Below are positions 18 to 4,189 of a stretch of DNA of 32,494 nucleotides, piece after piece. This DNA comes from Candidatus Binatia bacterium. GTDB taxonomy: Bacteria > Desulfobacterota > Binatia > UBA12015. Location of the stretch: the NCBI GenBank assembly GCA_029243485.1, contig JAQWRY010000065.1, positions 1 through 32,494 of the forward strand, read 5' to 3'. The number at the start of each line of letters is the position of its first letter. Position 1 is the stretch's first letter. Under the pieces are notes generated by a model. It saw only the letters and a program-made list of their open reading frames with translations, was not told where the DNA came from and searched no databases. The translations under genes and the position numbers were made by a program.

Positions 18-1739
18 ATGGTGGCTACGCTTGCGGCGGCTTGGCTGGTCGCCGCAGGATGTGGTGAGGGTGCGAGTGGCCCTCACGCGAACACCCTGGT
101 CGTGCCAGAAGCGGAGCCTGCACCAGATCCGTCCGACCCCAACGAGCCTCCGCAGGAGGGATGCGGCGAGGCGTTCGAGAGCACGTTCGGCGCGATTCAA
201 CAGGTCATCTTCGAGGATCGCGGCTGCACGGAGGCCGTCTGTCACGGTAGCTCCGCCCAGGGCGGTCTCGATCTGCGCCCGGACGTGGCCTACCAGAATC
301 TATTCCAAGCGGCGTCGCAGGGCAGCGCTCTTCCTCGACTTACACCTGGCGAACCCACCCAGAGCTACCTCTTCAGGAAGCTGCAAGCGGGGGTCGAGCC
401 TGGCCGCGTCGAGATCGCAGGCGCGCCGATGCCGAGCGGGCTTCCCCCGATTAGTGAAGGGCAGCTGGAAGCGTTGCGACTATGGATCGAGGTCGGTGCC
501 CCTGAGACTGGCTCGACTGGCGATTCGGTGCGCGGCTCATCCGACTACATCGAGGGACTTCTAGAGGTCTGCCTCCCGCCCGCAACGCCGGTCGAGATCG
601 CGCCCCTGCCGGCGCCCGACCCAGAGGTCGGTGTTCAGTTCGCGATGCCGACCTTTACCTTGCCGGCCGCAACCGAGGTCGAGGTGTGCTTCGCGCAGTA
701 CTTCGATTTCTCGGAGATCGTTCCCGAGACCTTCCAGGATCCCGAGGCCGGGGTCTTCTACGTGAACGGGAGCCGCCTCCGGCAGGATCCGCACAGCCAC
801 CACCTCATCCTCCACCATTCCGGGTTGGGTGCGGACTTCGTAGATCACGAGGCGTTCGGTGCCTGGGCGTGTCGGGGCGGAAGTCGCGACGGGGAGACGT
901 GCGATCCGTTAGACCCGGCGTTCTGTGGCGAGAGCCTCTGCGGCAGCGAAGTACGCGATTCGCTCGCCTGCATCGGATATGGGCCGCCTGATGCCGCGAT
1001 CAATCCTGCCGGCGGTGGTTTTGGAGGGGCGCAGACCGCCCAGCAGTTCAATCCTCCGCGCGACGGCCAGTTCGAAGCCCTTCCGATTCGTGGGATCCTT
1101 CTGTGGAATGCGCACGCCTTCAACCTGACCACCAAAGACCACGAGATGCATGCGTGGCAGAACTTCTTTTTTACGGATGATCTGCGCTTCGAGGAGCTCC
1201 GGATCGTCCGCGGTGGCAACGACTTCGCCGGACAGCCTCCGTTTACGTACGAGACCTATTGCACGGAGCACGTCATGCCGGAGGGTGCGGAGCTGCTGTT
1301 CTTGAGTTCGCACACGCACAAGCGCGGCCGGAACTTCACAGCCGACCTGCCAGACGGAACACGGATCTACGAGAGTGCCTTCTACTCAGACCCGGTGGAG
1401 CAGGAGTTCGATCCGCCGCTCCGGTTCGACTCGCCGAATCCCGCGGACCGCACCATTCATTACTGCGCGGACTATAACAATGGCGTCGACGACGACGGCG
1501 CGCCCGATCTGCGCTACGTGACCCGACTCTCCACCATGCCCAACCGCGCTACATGCACCCCGGTCGCATGTGTCGAGGGAAGAATCGGGTCGGCGTGTGC
1601 GGGCGAGGGAGACGACGAGGAATGCGACTCGTCACCGGGGGCCGGAGACGGTTGGTGCGATGCCTGCGCGATCACGCCGGGCGTCACGACGGAGAACGAG
1701 ATGTTCTTCCTTCTCGGATCGTACACGGTCCGCGAATGA
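18..1739 (+). CDS. Lipoprotein with CX4CH motif and PHM-like copper type II monooxygenase core (copy 1)
   Basis: Probably an exported, lipid-anchored copper oxygenase. The N-terminus is hydrophobic and ends in a lipobox (Cys15), followed by a Pro/Glu-rich linker. C70, C75 and H76 form a CX4CH haem-attachment-like motif in a small cytochrome-like domain. The C-terminal half shows the peptidylglycine alpha-hydroxylating monooxygenase (PHM) pattern: H261-H262 (first copper), H366 in a WNAHAFNLT segment, the HTH pair H432/H434 in HTHKRG (second copper), and M562 in an ENEMFFL segment placed like the PHM methionine ligand. Cysteine-rich inserts lie near residues 285-310 and 513-550. The reading frame is open upstream of the ATG at 18 to the window edge, and the short signal lacks a basic n-region, so the true start may lie before base 1. 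It is followed by a paralogue 41 bp downstream. The PHM assignment is by motif only and the substrate is unknown. Confidence 0.75.
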   Translation: MVATLAAAWLVAAGCGEGASGPHANTLVVPEAEPAPDPSDPNEPPQEGCGEAFESTFGAIQQVIFEDRGCTEAVCHGSSAQGGLDLRPDVAYQNLFQAASQGSALPRLTPGEPTQSYLFRKLQAGVEPGRVEIAGAPMPSGLPPISEGQLEALRLWIEVGAPETGSTGDSVRGSSDYIEGLLEVCLPPATPVEIAPLPAPDPEVGVQFAMPTFTLPAATEVEVCFAQYFDFSEIVPETFQDPEAGVFYVNGSRLRQDPHSHHLILHHSGLGADFVDHEAFGAWACRGGSRDGETCDPLDPAFCGESLCGSEVRDSLACIGYGPPDAAINPAGGGFGGAQTAQQFNPPRDGQFEALPIRGILLWNAHAFNLTTKDHEMHAWQNFFFTDDLRFEELRIVRGGNDFAGQPPFTYETYCTEHVMPEGAELLFLSSHTHKRGRNFTADLPDGTRIYESAFYSDPVEQEFDPPLRFDSPNPADRTIHYCADYNNGVDDDGAPDLRYVTRLSTMPNRATCTPVACVEGRIGSACAGEGDDEECDSSPGAGDGWCDACAITPGVTTENEMFFLLGSYTVRE

Positions 1740-1780
1740 CGGTCGAGGGCCTGAACCAACGAACGACTCGAGGGAAAGCC

Positions 1781-3538
1781 ATGATCGAAGTCCTGAAACG
1801 CAATTGTCTTGCCCTTCTTTTCTTTGTCTTCGTCGCTGGATTCGCGGCCGGTTGCGGCTCGGAATCCACGTCCGGCACGGCGACGTCCGCGCCGCCGGCG
1901 GAGATCCCGCCCGAGCCCGAGCCAGGGCCCGAGCCGGGACCAGACCCCGAACCGAACCCCGGCGACTGTGATGAGTCCTTCGACGGCGCGTACGACGCGA
2001 TCCAGAACGTCATCTTCGAACGACGTGGCTGCACCGCCGACGCGTGTCACGGCAGCAGTGCCGCGGGTGGCCTCGTGCTGAGTGCCGACGTTTCGTTCGA
2101 CAACCTCGTTCGAGCCGACTCGGTCGGCAGCATTCTACGCCGCGTCGAGCCGACGAAGGTGAAGGACAGCTACCTCTTCCATAAGCTCGCCGCCGCGACC
2201 GACCCGTCGTTGGTCACGATCGACCTCGCGGGAAGCGCGATGCCCCTGTCGGGCGCAGCGCTGTCGCGGCAGGAGCTCGAAGCGATCCGGTTGTGGATCG
2301 AGGGCGGGAGCCCGCGCGAAGGTTCGATCGGTGACGAGTTCGGCGGCAATCGCGTCGCCGACCTGCTCGACGCCTGCCTGCCGGATCCGGAGCCAGTGGT
2401 GATCGAGCCGCTCGAGCCGCCGGCCGACGGCATGGGCGTCCAGATGTCGATGCCGCCGCACCAGATTCCCGCCGCGAGTGAGTTCGAGATCTGCTTCGCC
2501 GAGTACATCGATTTCCGCGACCAGATCCCCGATGAGTTCCTCACGCCGGATGGCGATAGCTTCTATGCCAACGGAGAGACGAACCTGGCGGACCCCAACA
2601 CTCATCACCTGACGATCAGCTACTCGGGCTTCGGAGCCGAGATGGTGGACGCACCGGAGTTCGGTCGTTGGGAATGCGCCGCGGGCCCTCTCGAGGGGGA
2701 GGCTTGTGACCCCCTCGATCCCGACCACTGCGACGGCGGGCAATGTCGATCCGAGATCAAGAGCAGCGTCGCCTGCCTAGGCTTCGGACCGCGCGGCGGC
2801 GGGAGTGGCATTACCCCCGGTAGCCGCGTGCAGACGGCGAATGGGCGCCCTGGCTTCTTCGCCGAGTTCCCATCGCACGGGATCTTCTACTGGAACTCTC
2901 ATGCCTTCAACCTGACTCCGAAGGACCTAACGCATCACAACTACACCAACGTCTACTTCACCGACGATCTGCGCTTTAAGGACGTCGGCTTCCAGAATAC
3001 GTCGCAGCTCGGCATCGCCGCCGGCACGCCACCGTTCACGAAGGCAGAGTACTGCGCTGAGCATGTGCTTCCGCGCGGCACGGAGCTGTTGAGTCTCGTT
3101 TCGCATACACACAAGCGAGGCGAGCGGTTCACGATGAACCTGAAGAGCACCGGAGAGCTCCTGTACGACAACCCGTTCTGGGATGACCCGCTGTGGATCT
3201 ATTATGAGCCGGCGCGGCTGTTCGATTCCGAAGATCCCGCCGACCGAACGATCATCTATTGCGCGGTCTACAACAATGGTGTCGCGCCGGACGGCTCGCC
3301 CGACGTCGGAGGTGTCACGCGTCTCTCACGCAAGCCGGAACGATCGAGCTGCCGGCCTGTGGCGTGCGCCGAAGGCCTGATCGGCGAGCCCTGCAAAGGC
3401 GTGAACGATGACGCCGCATGCGACACCTCTCCCGGCGCGGGCGACGGCATGTGCGACGCGTGCCCGATCACGGGCGGCCTGACCAGCGACGACGAGATGT
3501 TCATCATCCTGGGATCGACTCTCGAGGTGGTCCAGTAG
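1781..3538 (+). CDS. Lipoprotein with CX4CH motif and PHM-like copper type II monooxygenase core (copy 2)
   Basis: 585-residue paralogue of the preceding gene, with the same domain order. The ATG at 1781 is chosen because it follows a GAGGGAAAG ribosome site and gives a clean signal: basic MIEVLKRN, a hydrophobic stretch and lipobox FAAGC (Cys25). The open frame extends upstream into the previous gene but has no signal there. A Pro-Glu-Pro-Gly linker (about 40-60) leads to C84/C89/H90 (CX4CH). Copper-type ligands are H275-H276, H374, H442/H444 in HTHKRG, and M573 in DEMFIIL. Cysteine-rich blocks at about 299-322 and 524-561 match copy 1. The pair probably forms one transcription unit, and close conservation of every ligand argues that both copies are active. 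It could act on an organic substrate in the periplasm or at the outer membrane. The exact reaction is not inferable. Confidence 0.78.
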   Translation: MIEVLKRNCLALLFFVFVAGFAAGCGSESTSGTATSAPPAEIPPEPEPGPEPGPDPEPNPGDCDESFDGAYDAIQNVIFERRGCTADACHGSSAAGGLVLSADVSFDNLVRADSVGSILRRVEPTKVKDSYLFHKLAAATDPSLVTIDLAGSAMPLSGAALSRQELEAIRLWIEGGSPREGSIGDEFGGNRVADLLDACLPDPEPVVIEPLEPPADGMGVQMSMPPHQIPAASEFEICFAEYIDFRDQIPDEFLTPDGDSFYANGETNLADPNTHHLTISYSGFGAEMVDAPEFGRWECAAGPLEGEACDPLDPDHCDGGQCRSEIKSSVACLGFGPRGGGSGITPGSRVQTANGRPGFFAEFPSHGIFYWNSHAFNLTPKDLTHHNYTNVYFTDDLRFKDVGFQNTSQLGIAAGTPPFTKAEYCAEHVLPRGTELLSLVSHTHKRGERFTMNLKSTGELLYDNPFWDDPLWIYYEPARLFDSEDPADRTIIYCAVYNNGVAPDGSPDVGGVTRLSRKPERSSCRPVACAEGLIGEPCKGVNDDAACDTSPGAGDGMCDACPITGGLTSDDEMFIILGSTLEVVQ

Positions 3539-3550
3539 AACGAGCTTGGG

Positions 3551-4126
3551 TCAGGGCAGGAGCCTCTGCGCCTGCTGCTGCATGTGGGAACGTAGCTCCT
3601 TGTCGGCGAGCTTCTCGACGAGAGGGTGGATGACTGCGCCACCGATGGCGGTCGTGAGCATGGCGACCTGTACCTGGGCCCGCGCGCCGGAGCCACCGCC
3701 CATCAGCATGCGGTATACGCGCTCCATCACTCGCCGGAAGGGCTCGTGCTCCGACAGGAAACGCAACATCACCGGGTCGCGCTGGAGGATGCCTGCCATC
3801 CGGCGGCGCGCGACGGCTAAGTCGATCATGCCAGTGATCAACACGTCGCGTCCTCGCGACATCGAGCGCTCGGCCTCGGCTGCGGTCACGGCCCCCTCCA
3901 ATGCCGACAGGATGACCTGAGCTACGGCGAGGACGATCTCGCCTTTGGTGCTGTACTGGTGGTAGACGGCGGCCTTCGTAACCCCGATCTCGTCCGCGAT
4001 CATCTGCAGTGAGGTCCCGCTGATCCCGTGCTCGCCGAACAATATGAGCGCGGCTCCGATGATCCGGCTCTGTGCACTGGTGGACGCCGGGCTGGGCAGG
4101 GCCGACGCGGCCTTGTCGGAGCTCAT
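3551..4126 (-). CDS. TetR family transcriptional regulator (TetR1)
   Basis: 191-residue TetR-type repressor. The N-terminal helix-turn-helix spans about residues 20-65, with SLQMIADEIGV and the recognition helix TKAAVYHQY typical of the family. The rest is the helical ligand-binding and dimer domain. The ATG at 4126 is preferred; a TTG at 4144 in the same frame would add six residues and has no better ribosome site. It is the last gene of a short leftward unit (37-aa ORF, SGNH-like remnant, TetR) whose upstream promoter (4569-4596) is one of three copies of a repeated promoter/operator. This makes it the best candidate for the repressor of that regulon, with autoregulation. It ends 12 bp from the converging copper protein gene. 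The family is clear; the operator assignment is inference. Confidence 0.88.
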   Translation of the reverse strand: MSSDKAASALPSPASTSAQSRIIGAALILFGEHGISGTSLQMIADEIGVTKAAVYHQYSTKGEIVLAVAQVILSALEGAVTAAEAERSMSRGRDVLITGMIDLAVARRRMAGILQRDPVMLRFLSEHEPFRRVMERVYRMLMGGGSGARAQVQVAMLTTAIGGAVIHPLVEKLADKELRSHMQQQAQRLLP

Positions 4127-4189
4127 CTCGGTGAGACTACCCAATCGGGTCTTGTTCGCGAACCCGCGTTCGAATCGCTCGTCGCTGGA

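What the first reader, a model, noticed from the sequence alone, without database searches (positions are those of the whole stretch)
18..3538. Fusion of a CX4CH haem-type domain to a PHM-like copper monooxygenase in a lipoprotein
Both proteins carry a CX4CH motif (C70/C75/H76; C84/C89/H90) followed by a full set of PHM-type ligands (HH, H, HTH, Met). A covalent haem next to a type II copper oxygenase could supply electrons directly in place of ascorbate. I know of no described enzyme with this order in a bacterial surface lipoprotein.
Basis: partly seen in the sequence, partly recalled or inferred. Interest (0 to 1): 0.75.

Follow-up and report, generated by a model that had tools for sequence, protein, structure and literature searches.

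The report
Haem-fused PHM-like copper monooxygenase lipoproteins
Two neighbouring bacterial genes encode lipoproteins that join a cytochrome c-type haem domain to a copper enzyme domain resembling the one that makes amidated hormones in animals, which suggests that the haem, rather than vitamin C, feeds electrons to the copper.

Summary
Both ORFs (18-1739 and 1781-3538, +) carry CX4CH, then HH, H, HTH and Met, behind a lipobox. The C-terminal ~375 residues of protein 2 have the PHM/DBH fold by prediction: the 26 top structural rows are all PHM or DBH, Z 11.7-13.8, next 8.3. A profile comparison aligns five of six PHM copper ligands. In 65 full-length sequences (mean identity 44%, window proteins included), both Cys, the His and a Met of the haem domain and all six copper ligands are invariant; the invariant His and Met are exactly these. 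One clade has classical CX2CH instead of CX4CH. The domain hits cytochrome c Pfam families and also follows PQQ-type propellers in this genome. The arrangement is real but not unique: 15 intact copies here, and other PHM groups carry the same fusion. Haem, copper, substrate and activity are unproven; ligand distances could not be measured; the haem-domain model had no significant Foldseek hit. Best reading: a haem-fed, ascorbate-independent PHM-type hydroxylase acting outside the cytoplasm. New variant of a known kind.

The parts
18..1739 (+). Protein 1 (573 aa as annotated; start may lie beyond the contig end): lipoprotein signal, CX4CH haem-c-like domain, PHM-like domain
   Evidence: 48% identical to protein 2
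60..62 (+). Predicted lipobox Cys (VAAGC, C15) of protein 1
   Evidence: sequence; loose lipobox pattern found in 43 of 65 sequences
162..572 (+). Haem-c-like domain of protein 1, between two invariant Cys (C49, C185); CX4CH C70/C75/H76 (225-245), candidate axial Met M138 (429-431)
585..1736 (+). PHM-like domain of protein 1: H261 H262 (798-803), H366 (1113-1115), H432 (1311-1313), H434 (1317-1319), M562 (1701-1703); domain start approximate
   Evidence: fold was predicted only for its paralogue, protein 2
1781..3538 (+). Protein 2 (585 aa), same architecture, 41 bp after protein 1; probable operon
1853..1855 (+). Predicted lipobox Cys (FAAGC, C25) of protein 2
   Evidence: sequence
1967..2377 (+). 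Haem-c-like domain of protein 2: CX4CH C84/C89/H90 (2030-2050), candidate axial Met M154 (2240-2242), bracketed by C63 and C199
2408..3535 (+). PHM/DBH-fold domain of protein 2: CuH-type H275 H276 (2603-2608), H374 (2900-2902); CuM-type H442 (3104-3106), H444 (3110-3112), M573 (3497-3499); Cys-rich insertion between C494 and M573
3551..4144 (-). TetR-type regulator (neighbour)
   Evidence: PF00440
4645..5478 (+). Enoyl-CoA hydratase family protein (neighbour)
   Evidence: PF00378
5488..6588 (+). DUF7064 protein (neighbour)
   Evidence: PF23212
6635..9109 (-). TonB-dependent outer-membrane receptor (neighbour; possible uptake route for the product)
   Evidence: PF00593, PF07715

Best explanation
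Both genes encode exported lipoproteins made of an N-terminal c-type cytochrome domain (haem attached through CX4CH, with His and Met as axial ligands) and a C-terminal PHM/DBH-type two-domain copper monooxygenase (CuH: H275, H276, H374; CuM: H442, H444, M573 in protein 2). Most likely the haem takes single electrons from a periplasmic or outer-membrane donor and passes them to the copper sites, replacing ascorbate; CuM then activates O2 and hydroxylates a C-H bond of a substrate outside the cytoplasm, whose product enters through TonB receptors and is degraded by CoA-dependent pathways. Shown: sequence, fold by prediction, ligand conservation, homology of both domains to known families. Inferred: haem and copper occupancy, direction of electron flow, hydroxylation, substrate, cellular location.
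For: Fold: Foldseek top hit human DBH (E 1.5e-7); all 19 hits at E<=0.001 are DBH or PHM; VIA-align rows 1-26 all PHM/DBH, Z 11.7-13.8, rmsd 3.8-4.7, 231-255 aligned, next row Z 8.3. Profile: whole-protein hhalign against eight PF03712-positive proteins, six of them with a CX4CH domain, probability 99.8, E 1.1e-28; PHM part alone, three settings, probability 97.4-98.6, E 1.1e-11 to 1e-14, with the H107, H108, H172, H242 and H244 equivalents aligned His to His; the profile of those eight finds PHM in the PDB at E 7.5e-14. Conservation: ten of ten putative ligands invariant in 65 of 65. Haem: 72 haem-type domains give Pfam hits at E<=0.1 to PSCyt1 (28, best 7.7e-7), CTI (19, best 0.0014), Cytochrome_CBB3 (11, best 2.2e-4) and Cytochrom_C (3, best 6e-4); PDB profile hit FoxE, E 0.0025 summed over weak stretches; 4 of 65 carry CX2CH, as one clade; the same domain follows PQQ propellers in two own-genome proteins; CcmE is present. 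Coupling: of 13 PF03712 matches in 39 genomes, 7 have CX4CH in the same ORF, one of these (L055) in reverse order and below Pfam's cut-off; 6 of 8 gammaproteobacterial loci add a CX2CH motif upstream by eye, and of the two scanned L024 passes Pfam's Cytochrome_CBB3 cut-off and L030 does not.
Against: No Pfam hit for either window protein at E<=1; no direct PDB sequence hit for protein 1 and only a chance hit for the family profile. The whole-protein model is middling (pLDDT 62.7, pTM 0.56), Foldseek TM-scores are low (0.17-0.26 by query for the 19 hits, rmsd 10 or more), and most of the region before M573 is below pLDDT 50. The haem-domain model (pLDDT 77.3) has no Foldseek hit at E<=0.001 and one weak VIA row out of 64 chains (hydrazine synthase, Z 4.7). 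The two FoxE stretches are not significant singly. M573 was not aligned to M314 by hhalign. No coordinates were available, so haem-copper and copper-copper distances are unknown. In the PF03712-positive group the Met position is His in 7 of 8 rows, so that group may use different chemistry. Substrate is unknown.
Confidence: 0.65

Rival explanations
1. Electrons run the other way: the PHM-like site oxidises a substrate (or Cu(I), or another small molecule) and the haem carries electrons off to the respiratory chain, as in PQQ dehydrogenases with a C-terminal cytochrome.
For: The same CX4CH domain is fused to PQQ-type propellers in this genome, where it would be expected to accept electrons; sequence alone does not fix direction.
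Against: All six ligands of the O2-activating PHM family are kept in 65 of 65, and known members with that set are monooxygenases that need electron input (recalled).
Confidence: 0.15
2. CX4CH is a structural disulfide or zinc motif and the domain carries no haem; the enzyme is an ordinary PHM-type monooxygenase fed by a diffusible reductant.
For: Single-sequence Pfam search finds no cytochrome family for either window protein; protein 2's domain alone reaches PSCyt1 only at E 0.14; the haem-domain model has no significant Foldseek match; the proteins have many Cys (19 and 20).
Against: C, C, H and M are invariant in 65 of 65 and in 72 of 72 haem-type domains; one clade has classical CX2CH in the same place; three cytochrome c Pfam families and CTI are hit by members of the set; CcmE present.
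Confidence: 0.12
3. The PHM-fold part is not catalytic: it binds copper or a ligand for sensing, copper storage or delivery, with haem as redox sensor.
For: Exported copper-ligand proteins can serve homeostasis (recalled); the family is lipid-anchored by prediction and greatly multiplied.
Against: Both halves of the split PHM site are complete and invariant; storage would not need the exact CuH/CuM set. Of 20 neighbouring ORFs scanned, none hit a copper-resistance family and most hit catabolic enzyme families.
Confidence: 0.08

Closest known systems
Peptidylglycine alpha-hydroxylating monooxygenase / dopamine beta-hydroxylase (PF01082/PF03712)
   Same: Predicted two-domain beta fold, HH + H and HxH + Met ligand set in the same order, five His aligned position by position through an intermediate group.
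   Different: No match to the Pfam models; 8-14% identity to PHM/DBH chains in the structural alignments; Cys-rich insertion before the Met; fused cytochrome c-like domain; bacterial lipoprotein; substrate unknown.
Planctomycete-type / CBB3-type cytochrome c domains (PF07635, PF13442)
   Same: CXnCH, later Met in an MP motif, then a helix ending W-I-x-x-G-A; Pfam hits at E<=0.1 in 28 and 11 of 72 domains.
   Different: CX4CH instead of CX2CH in 61 of 65; bracketed by two invariant Cys.
Cellvibrio japonicus Cbp2D domain CjX183, a c-type cytochrome that reduces LPMOs (PMC8981238; abstract and section 5 read)
   Same: Works-like precedent: a bacterial c-type cytochrome domain feeds electrons to a mononuclear-copper monooxygenase in place of ascorbate.
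   Different: LPMO is an unrelated fold (recalled), and the cytochrome there belongs to another protein; here haem and PHM-like domains share one chain.
Quinohaemoproteins (PQQ dehydrogenase with C-terminal cytochrome c; recalled)
   Same: Same logic of a redox enzyme with its own cytochrome; two own-genome PQQ-propeller proteins bear this CX4CH domain.
   Different: Different catalytic domain and electron direction.

Membership tests
PHM/DBH copper monooxygenases | PHM/DBH two-domain fold | tested here: met
   protein 2: 19 of 19 hits at E<=0.001, but low TM-scores; Z 11.7-13.8 against 8.3 for the next row; model quality middling
PHM/DBH copper monooxygenases | CuH ligands H107, H108, H172 | tested here: met
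   His aligned to His in three hhalign settings against the PF03712-positive group, itself aligned to PHM; invariant 65 of 65. PHM ligand numbers are recalled; PDB titles support 107, 108, 172 and 314
PHM/DBH copper monooxygenases | CuM ligands H242, H244 | tested here: met
PHM/DBH copper monooxygenases | CuM ligand M314 | tested here: inconclusive
   M573 invariant 65 of 65, preceded by Glu in 63 of 65, like DEMC of PHM, but hhalign did not reach it; last aligned residues 559 and 326 would pair M573 (model residue 547) with 314 if that strand has no gap (inference)
PHM/DBH copper monooxygenases | Recognised by Pfam PF01082/PF03712 (a detection threshold, not a biochemical trait) | tested here: not met
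   no hit at E<=1; reached only through intermediates
PHM/DBH copper monooxygenases | Two bound coppers about 11 A apart, O2-dependent hydroxylation | not testable with these tools
c-type cytochromes | CXnCH haem-attachment motif | tested here: met
   CX4CH 61 of 65, CX2CH 4 of 65
c-type cytochromes | Invariant candidate for the distal axial ligand | tested here: met
   Met invariant 65 of 65 and 72 of 72; that it binds iron is inferred
c-type cytochromes | Sequence relation to known cytochrome c families | tested here: met
   for members of the set (three further Pfam families were hit by one member each and look like chance); protein 2's own domain only PSCyt1 E 0.14, under the cut-off; whole window proteins none
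c-type cytochromes | Cytochrome c fold in the model | tested here: inconclusive
c-type cytochromes | Haem c biogenesis in the host | tested here: met
   CcmE, 83 bits; other Ccm parts not searched
c-type cytochromes | Covalent haem | not testable with these tools
   needs protein
Bacterial lipoproteins | N-terminal hydrophobic stretch with lipobox Cys | tested here: met
   both window proteins and 43 of 65 sequences in all by a loose pattern; the other 22 were not followed up and some fetched stretches may lack the start

The most novel reading that the evidence does not exclude
A large, unnamed enzyme family of self-sufficient, haem-fed PHM-type copper hydroxylases, amplified to 15 intact copies in this genome and to many in its relatives (7 to 37 matching pieces per genome in the same family), shared with some marine gammaproteobacteria, each paralogue tuned to a different hydrophobic substrate outside the cell; the first PHM-type enzymes that take electrons from a built-in haem instead of ascorbate.
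Probability: 0.45. Interest if true: 0.82.

Novelty: new variant of a known kind. Interest (0 to 1): 0.62.

Why it matters
PHM and DBH are textbook ascorbate enzymes whose long-range electron transfer between two distant coppers is debated (recalled). A natural version with its own haem would give an optical handle on electron delivery, make single-turnover studies direct, and show how bacteria without ascorbate could run this chemistry. The number of copies suggests an unrecognised route for oxidising environmental compounds in uncultured bacteria; a copy in the named strain HTCC2148 makes it testable.

Tried and rejected
Pfam and NCBIfam on the two window proteins gave nothing above cut-off; phmmer of protein 1 and an A1 profile against PDB sequences gave nothing or chance; a narrow haem-domain profile gave only a chance PDB hit, so a broader set of 72 was used. 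Very long open frames in some homologues were checked in ten fetched loci as possible extra domains and rejected: a lipobox-like stretch lies just before the haem domain in the Binatia-type ones and the rest reads as unconserved upstream frame. A TonB-receptor link was tested after looking at the distances: 5 of 14 own-genome loci (the two window genes counted as one) lie within 10 kb of a Plug domain against 1.7 expected (P 0.02), 4 within 5 kb against 1.0 (P 0.013), under a uniform model that ignores contig ends and clustering; suggestive only. The HTCC2148 copy also has a TonB receptor 2.7 kb upstream, one of the loci scanned. DUF7064 does not track the family: 4 matches in the genome, only the window's lies near a copy (where it is below cut-off; hmmscan of the protein puts it over). 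Neighbourhoods differ between this genome and the three gammaproteobacterial loci looked at, so no substrate could be read from context. phmmer of L135 against the PDB gave a glycosyl hydrolase at E 1.2e-4 over 59 residues, no PHM, so its PHM nature rests on motifs alone.

Literature: no cytochrome-PHM fusion or bacterial PHM of this type appeared in what I saw of the listings: searches (3 of 3 papers; 2 of 2; 2 of 2; 10 of 10; 16 of 16) whole; others (20 of 89; 25 of 242; 20 of 47; 12 of 69; 5 of 4,069) in part. The Binatota genome paper (PMC8262859, passages by term search) has no 'peptidylglycine' and the copper passages shown concern membrane copper monooxygenases; PMC4782131 (passages) proved irrelevant. 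PMC10734462 (passages) counts CX4CH as a haem-binding motif.

Rows dropped: the 65 are hits covering profile positions <=20 to >=505, repeats of the same sequence removed (some near-identical pairs remain); fragments, contig-end pieces, remnants and the PF03712-positive group were left out of that count.
Full report
What was checked. The window is one whole contig (C65, 32,494 bases) of a 6.55-Mb genome assembly that is 97.5% complete. Two ORFs lie head to tail at its left end: 18-1739 (573 aa) and, from the ATG at 1781, 1781-3538 (585 aa), 41 bp apart, 48% identical. Both show coding-type GC by codon position. The first frame is open to the contig end, so its start is uncertain.

The copper half. 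Neither protein matches any Pfam model at E<=1; protein 1 matches no PDB sequence and the family profile only by chance. An AlphaFold2 model of mature protein 2 from 14 sequences has pLDDT 62.7 and pTM 0.56. Foldseek against the PDB puts human dopamine beta-hydroxylase first (E 1.5e-7), and all 19 hits at E<=0.001 are DBH or PHM, though with low TM-scores (0.17-0.26 by query). Re-alignment by VIA-align gives 26 rows of PHM/DBH with Z 11.7-13.8 over 231-255 residues, the next row being unrelated with Z 8.3. Protein 1 was not modelled.

Linking to PHM by sequence. A search of 39 related genomes with PF03712 found 13 matches in 10 genomes. Seven of the 13 have a CX4CH motif in the same ORF (L046, L047, L048, L050, L052, L056, and L055 in reverse order and below cut-off); L053, L054 and L057 do not, and my filter printed no suitable ORF for L049, L051 and L058. 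In this genome there are two matches, and both sit behind a CX4CH domain (L048, L056). Eight proteins over the cut-off were aligned (A2), six with CX4CH and two (L053, L057) without; all eight hit PF03712 in hmmscan, and their profile finds PHM at E 7.5e-14 with the HH, H172, HxH and Met/His positions aligned. hhalign of the window family (A1) with A2 gives probability 99.8, E 1.1e-28, across both domains. With the haem part removed, a 65-row profile against A2 gives probability 97.4-98.6 and E 1.1e-11 to 1e-14 in three settings, and pairs H275, H276, H374, H442 and H444 with the five PHM His ligands in each. hhalign E-values for one pair are not calibrated on a database. M573 was not reached; its pairing with M314 rests on the E-M motif and on the end of the structural alignment (model 559 with PHM 326; M573 is model residue 547), which is inference. 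PHM ligand numbers are recalled.

The haem half. Across 65 full-length sequences (mean pairwise identity 0.44, minimum 0.31), C84, C89, H90 and M154 are invariant. Four of 65 have CX2CH at the same place (L013 in this genome, L093, L094, L095), and they form one clade with support 1.0 in a midpoint-rooted tree of otherwise CX4CH proteins; they keep every other ligand. In 72 haem-type domains C, C, H, M, P and a Trp are among only eight invariant columns. At E<=0.1 these domains hit PSCyt1 in 28 of 72 (best 7.7e-7), CTI in 19 (best 0.0014), Cytochrome_CBB3 in 11 (best 2.2e-4) and Cytochrom_C in 3 (best 6e-4); three unrelated families were hit by one member each. That CTI is a haem protein is recalled. 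Protein 2's own domain reaches PSCyt1 only at E 0.14. The best PDB match is FoxE (a dihaem cytochrome, recalled), E 0.0025 summed over stretches that are not significant singly. Against this, a model of the domain alone (pLDDT 77.3, pTM 0.78) has no Foldseek hit at E<=0.001 and a single weak VIA row among 64 chains, hydrazine synthase residues 674-801, Z 4.7. The host has CcmE. That CX4CH can bind haem c is known from Desulfovibrio cytochrome c3 (recalled) and is assumed in PMC10734462 (passages).

Specificity of the conservation. Of 13 His in protein 2's aligned region, six are invariant: one haem His and five copper His. Of eight Met, two are invariant: the haem Met and the CuM-type Met. Of 18 Cys, 15 are invariant. 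This is what a haem-plus-two-copper protein should show. The 65 include the two window proteins, were drawn from loci in hand rather than from all matches, and were selected by end-to-end profile match, so the count does not speak for degenerate copies; two of three own-genome remnants have lost the first His of HxH.

How common it is. This genome holds 15 intact copies of the family (alignment A3) and broken remnants at C62:59565-60239, C28:222422-223255 and C73:30413-31222, none of whose matched pieces covers CX4CH; two short pieces at C28:45186-45446 may be a fourth. At E<=1e-10 matches occur in 28 of 39 genomes: 14 of 14 of the same family (own included) and 14 of 25 others of the class, some perhaps through the haem domain alone. 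In an even sample of the phylum, 4 of 198 match at E<=1e-40, all in the window's own class. Outside it, the eight gammaproteobacterial genomes behind loci L024-L031 (titled Halioglobus, Haliea, Halieaceae, Spongiibacteraceae, HTCC2148 or only Gammaproteobacteria) carry 1-2 matches each, and 6 of 58 genomes drawn around HTCC2148's, itself included, match at E<=1e-20. The gammaproteobacterial copies form one clade (support 1.0) among the others. The window's class is probably Binatia: a same-family genome (G006) holds a contig of the same length, with an ORF of the same length and profile score, as JAIEPK010000444.1, titled Candidatus Binatia (inference).

Fusion as evidence of function. A profile of the haem domain finds 30 places in this genome. 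Fifteen are this family. Two more are PF03712-recognised PHM proteins (L126, L129), and two (L131, L135) look PHM-like by motif only, with the haem domain at the other end; Pfam does not recognise them and a PDB search of L135 found no PHM. Two have PQQ propellers followed by CX4CH (L133, L134). The rest are other or unidentified proteins and fragments. In another genome L055 has the PHM part first and CX4CH last, PF03712 below cut-off (19.3 against 23 bits). Six of eight gammaproteobacterial homologues have an extra upstream CX2CH motif by eye; of two scanned, Pfam's Cytochrome_CBB3 passes its cut-off in L024 (27.4 bits against 27) and misses it in L030 (24.2). The domain therefore behaves as a mobile redox module.

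How it most likely works. Electrons from a periplasmic or outer-membrane donor reduce the haem; the haem reduces the coppers one electron at a time; CuM activates O2 and hydroxylates a substrate outside the cytoplasm. Cbp2D's cytochrome domain CjX183 does the equivalent for LPMOs (PMC8981238, abstract and section 5). Downstream in the window lie a TetR regulator, an enoyl-CoA hydratase, a DUF7064 protein and a TonB receptor, then amidohydrolases, aldehyde dehydrogenase, a thiolase-like protein, CoA transferases, P450, luciferase-like monooxygenase and an AMP-binding (acyl-CoA synthetase-like) enzyme, which reads as a catabolic island. Five of 14 family loci lie within 10 kb of a TonB Plug domain against 1.7 expected (P 0.02); the thresholds were set after seeing the distances, so this is suggestive only. 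Substrate and direction of flow are not shown.

Verdict. It works like a PHM with a built-in cytochrome donor. As to membership, it shares fold and His ligands with PHM/DBH but lies outside the present Pfam models, so I call it a remote, haem-fused branch of that superfamily: a new variant of a known kind. No paper describing it appeared in what ten searches of open-licence literature listed (five of them seen in part); subscription journals were not covered.

Noticed in passing
L133 (G000:C3:117936-118268 region, -) and L134 (G000:C66:1585-1929 region, +): PQQ-type beta-propeller proteins with a C-terminal CX4CH haem-like domain (CAGGSCH, CASGSCH): quinohaemoprotein-like enzymes using the same unusual motif.
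   Followed up: partly
L131 (G000:C86:699257 region) and L135 (G000:C50:374-709 region): Proteins with HH, HYH and QEMC motifs followed by CX4CH; PHM-like by eye but unknown to Pfam, haem domain at the C-terminus.
   Followed up: partly
L046, L047, L048, L050, L052, L053, L057 (alignment A2): PF03712-recognised bacterial PHM proteins in which the CuM Met position is His (NEHC); 7 of 8 rows of A2, L056 alone has Met; a natural M314H-type variant.
   Followed up: no
G000:C62:59565-60239 (-), C28:222422-223255 (+), C73:30413-31222 (-): Broken or shortened copies of the family whose matched pieces lack the CX4CH motif; signs of birth and death in a large paralogue set.
   Followed up: partly
L024, L025, L026, L028, L029, L030 (gammaproteobacterial loci): Homologues in open frames of 811-960 aa with an extra CX2CH motif upstream of CX4CH; would carry two haems in line with the copper domain. 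L024, L027, L030 and L031 also end in a His-rich GHYHxYL region (Pfam for L024 and L030 only).
   Followed up: partly
window 3260-3496 (and homologues): Cys-rich insertion (CxPxAC...CDSSPGAGDGxCDAC) between C494 and M573 with nearly invariant Cys, yet low-confidence in the model.
   Followed up: no
window 9258-30238: Dense catabolic island: three amidohydrolases, P450, luciferase-like monooxygenase, three CoA transferases, aldehyde dehydrogenase, thiolase-like and AMP-binding enzymes.
   Followed up: partly
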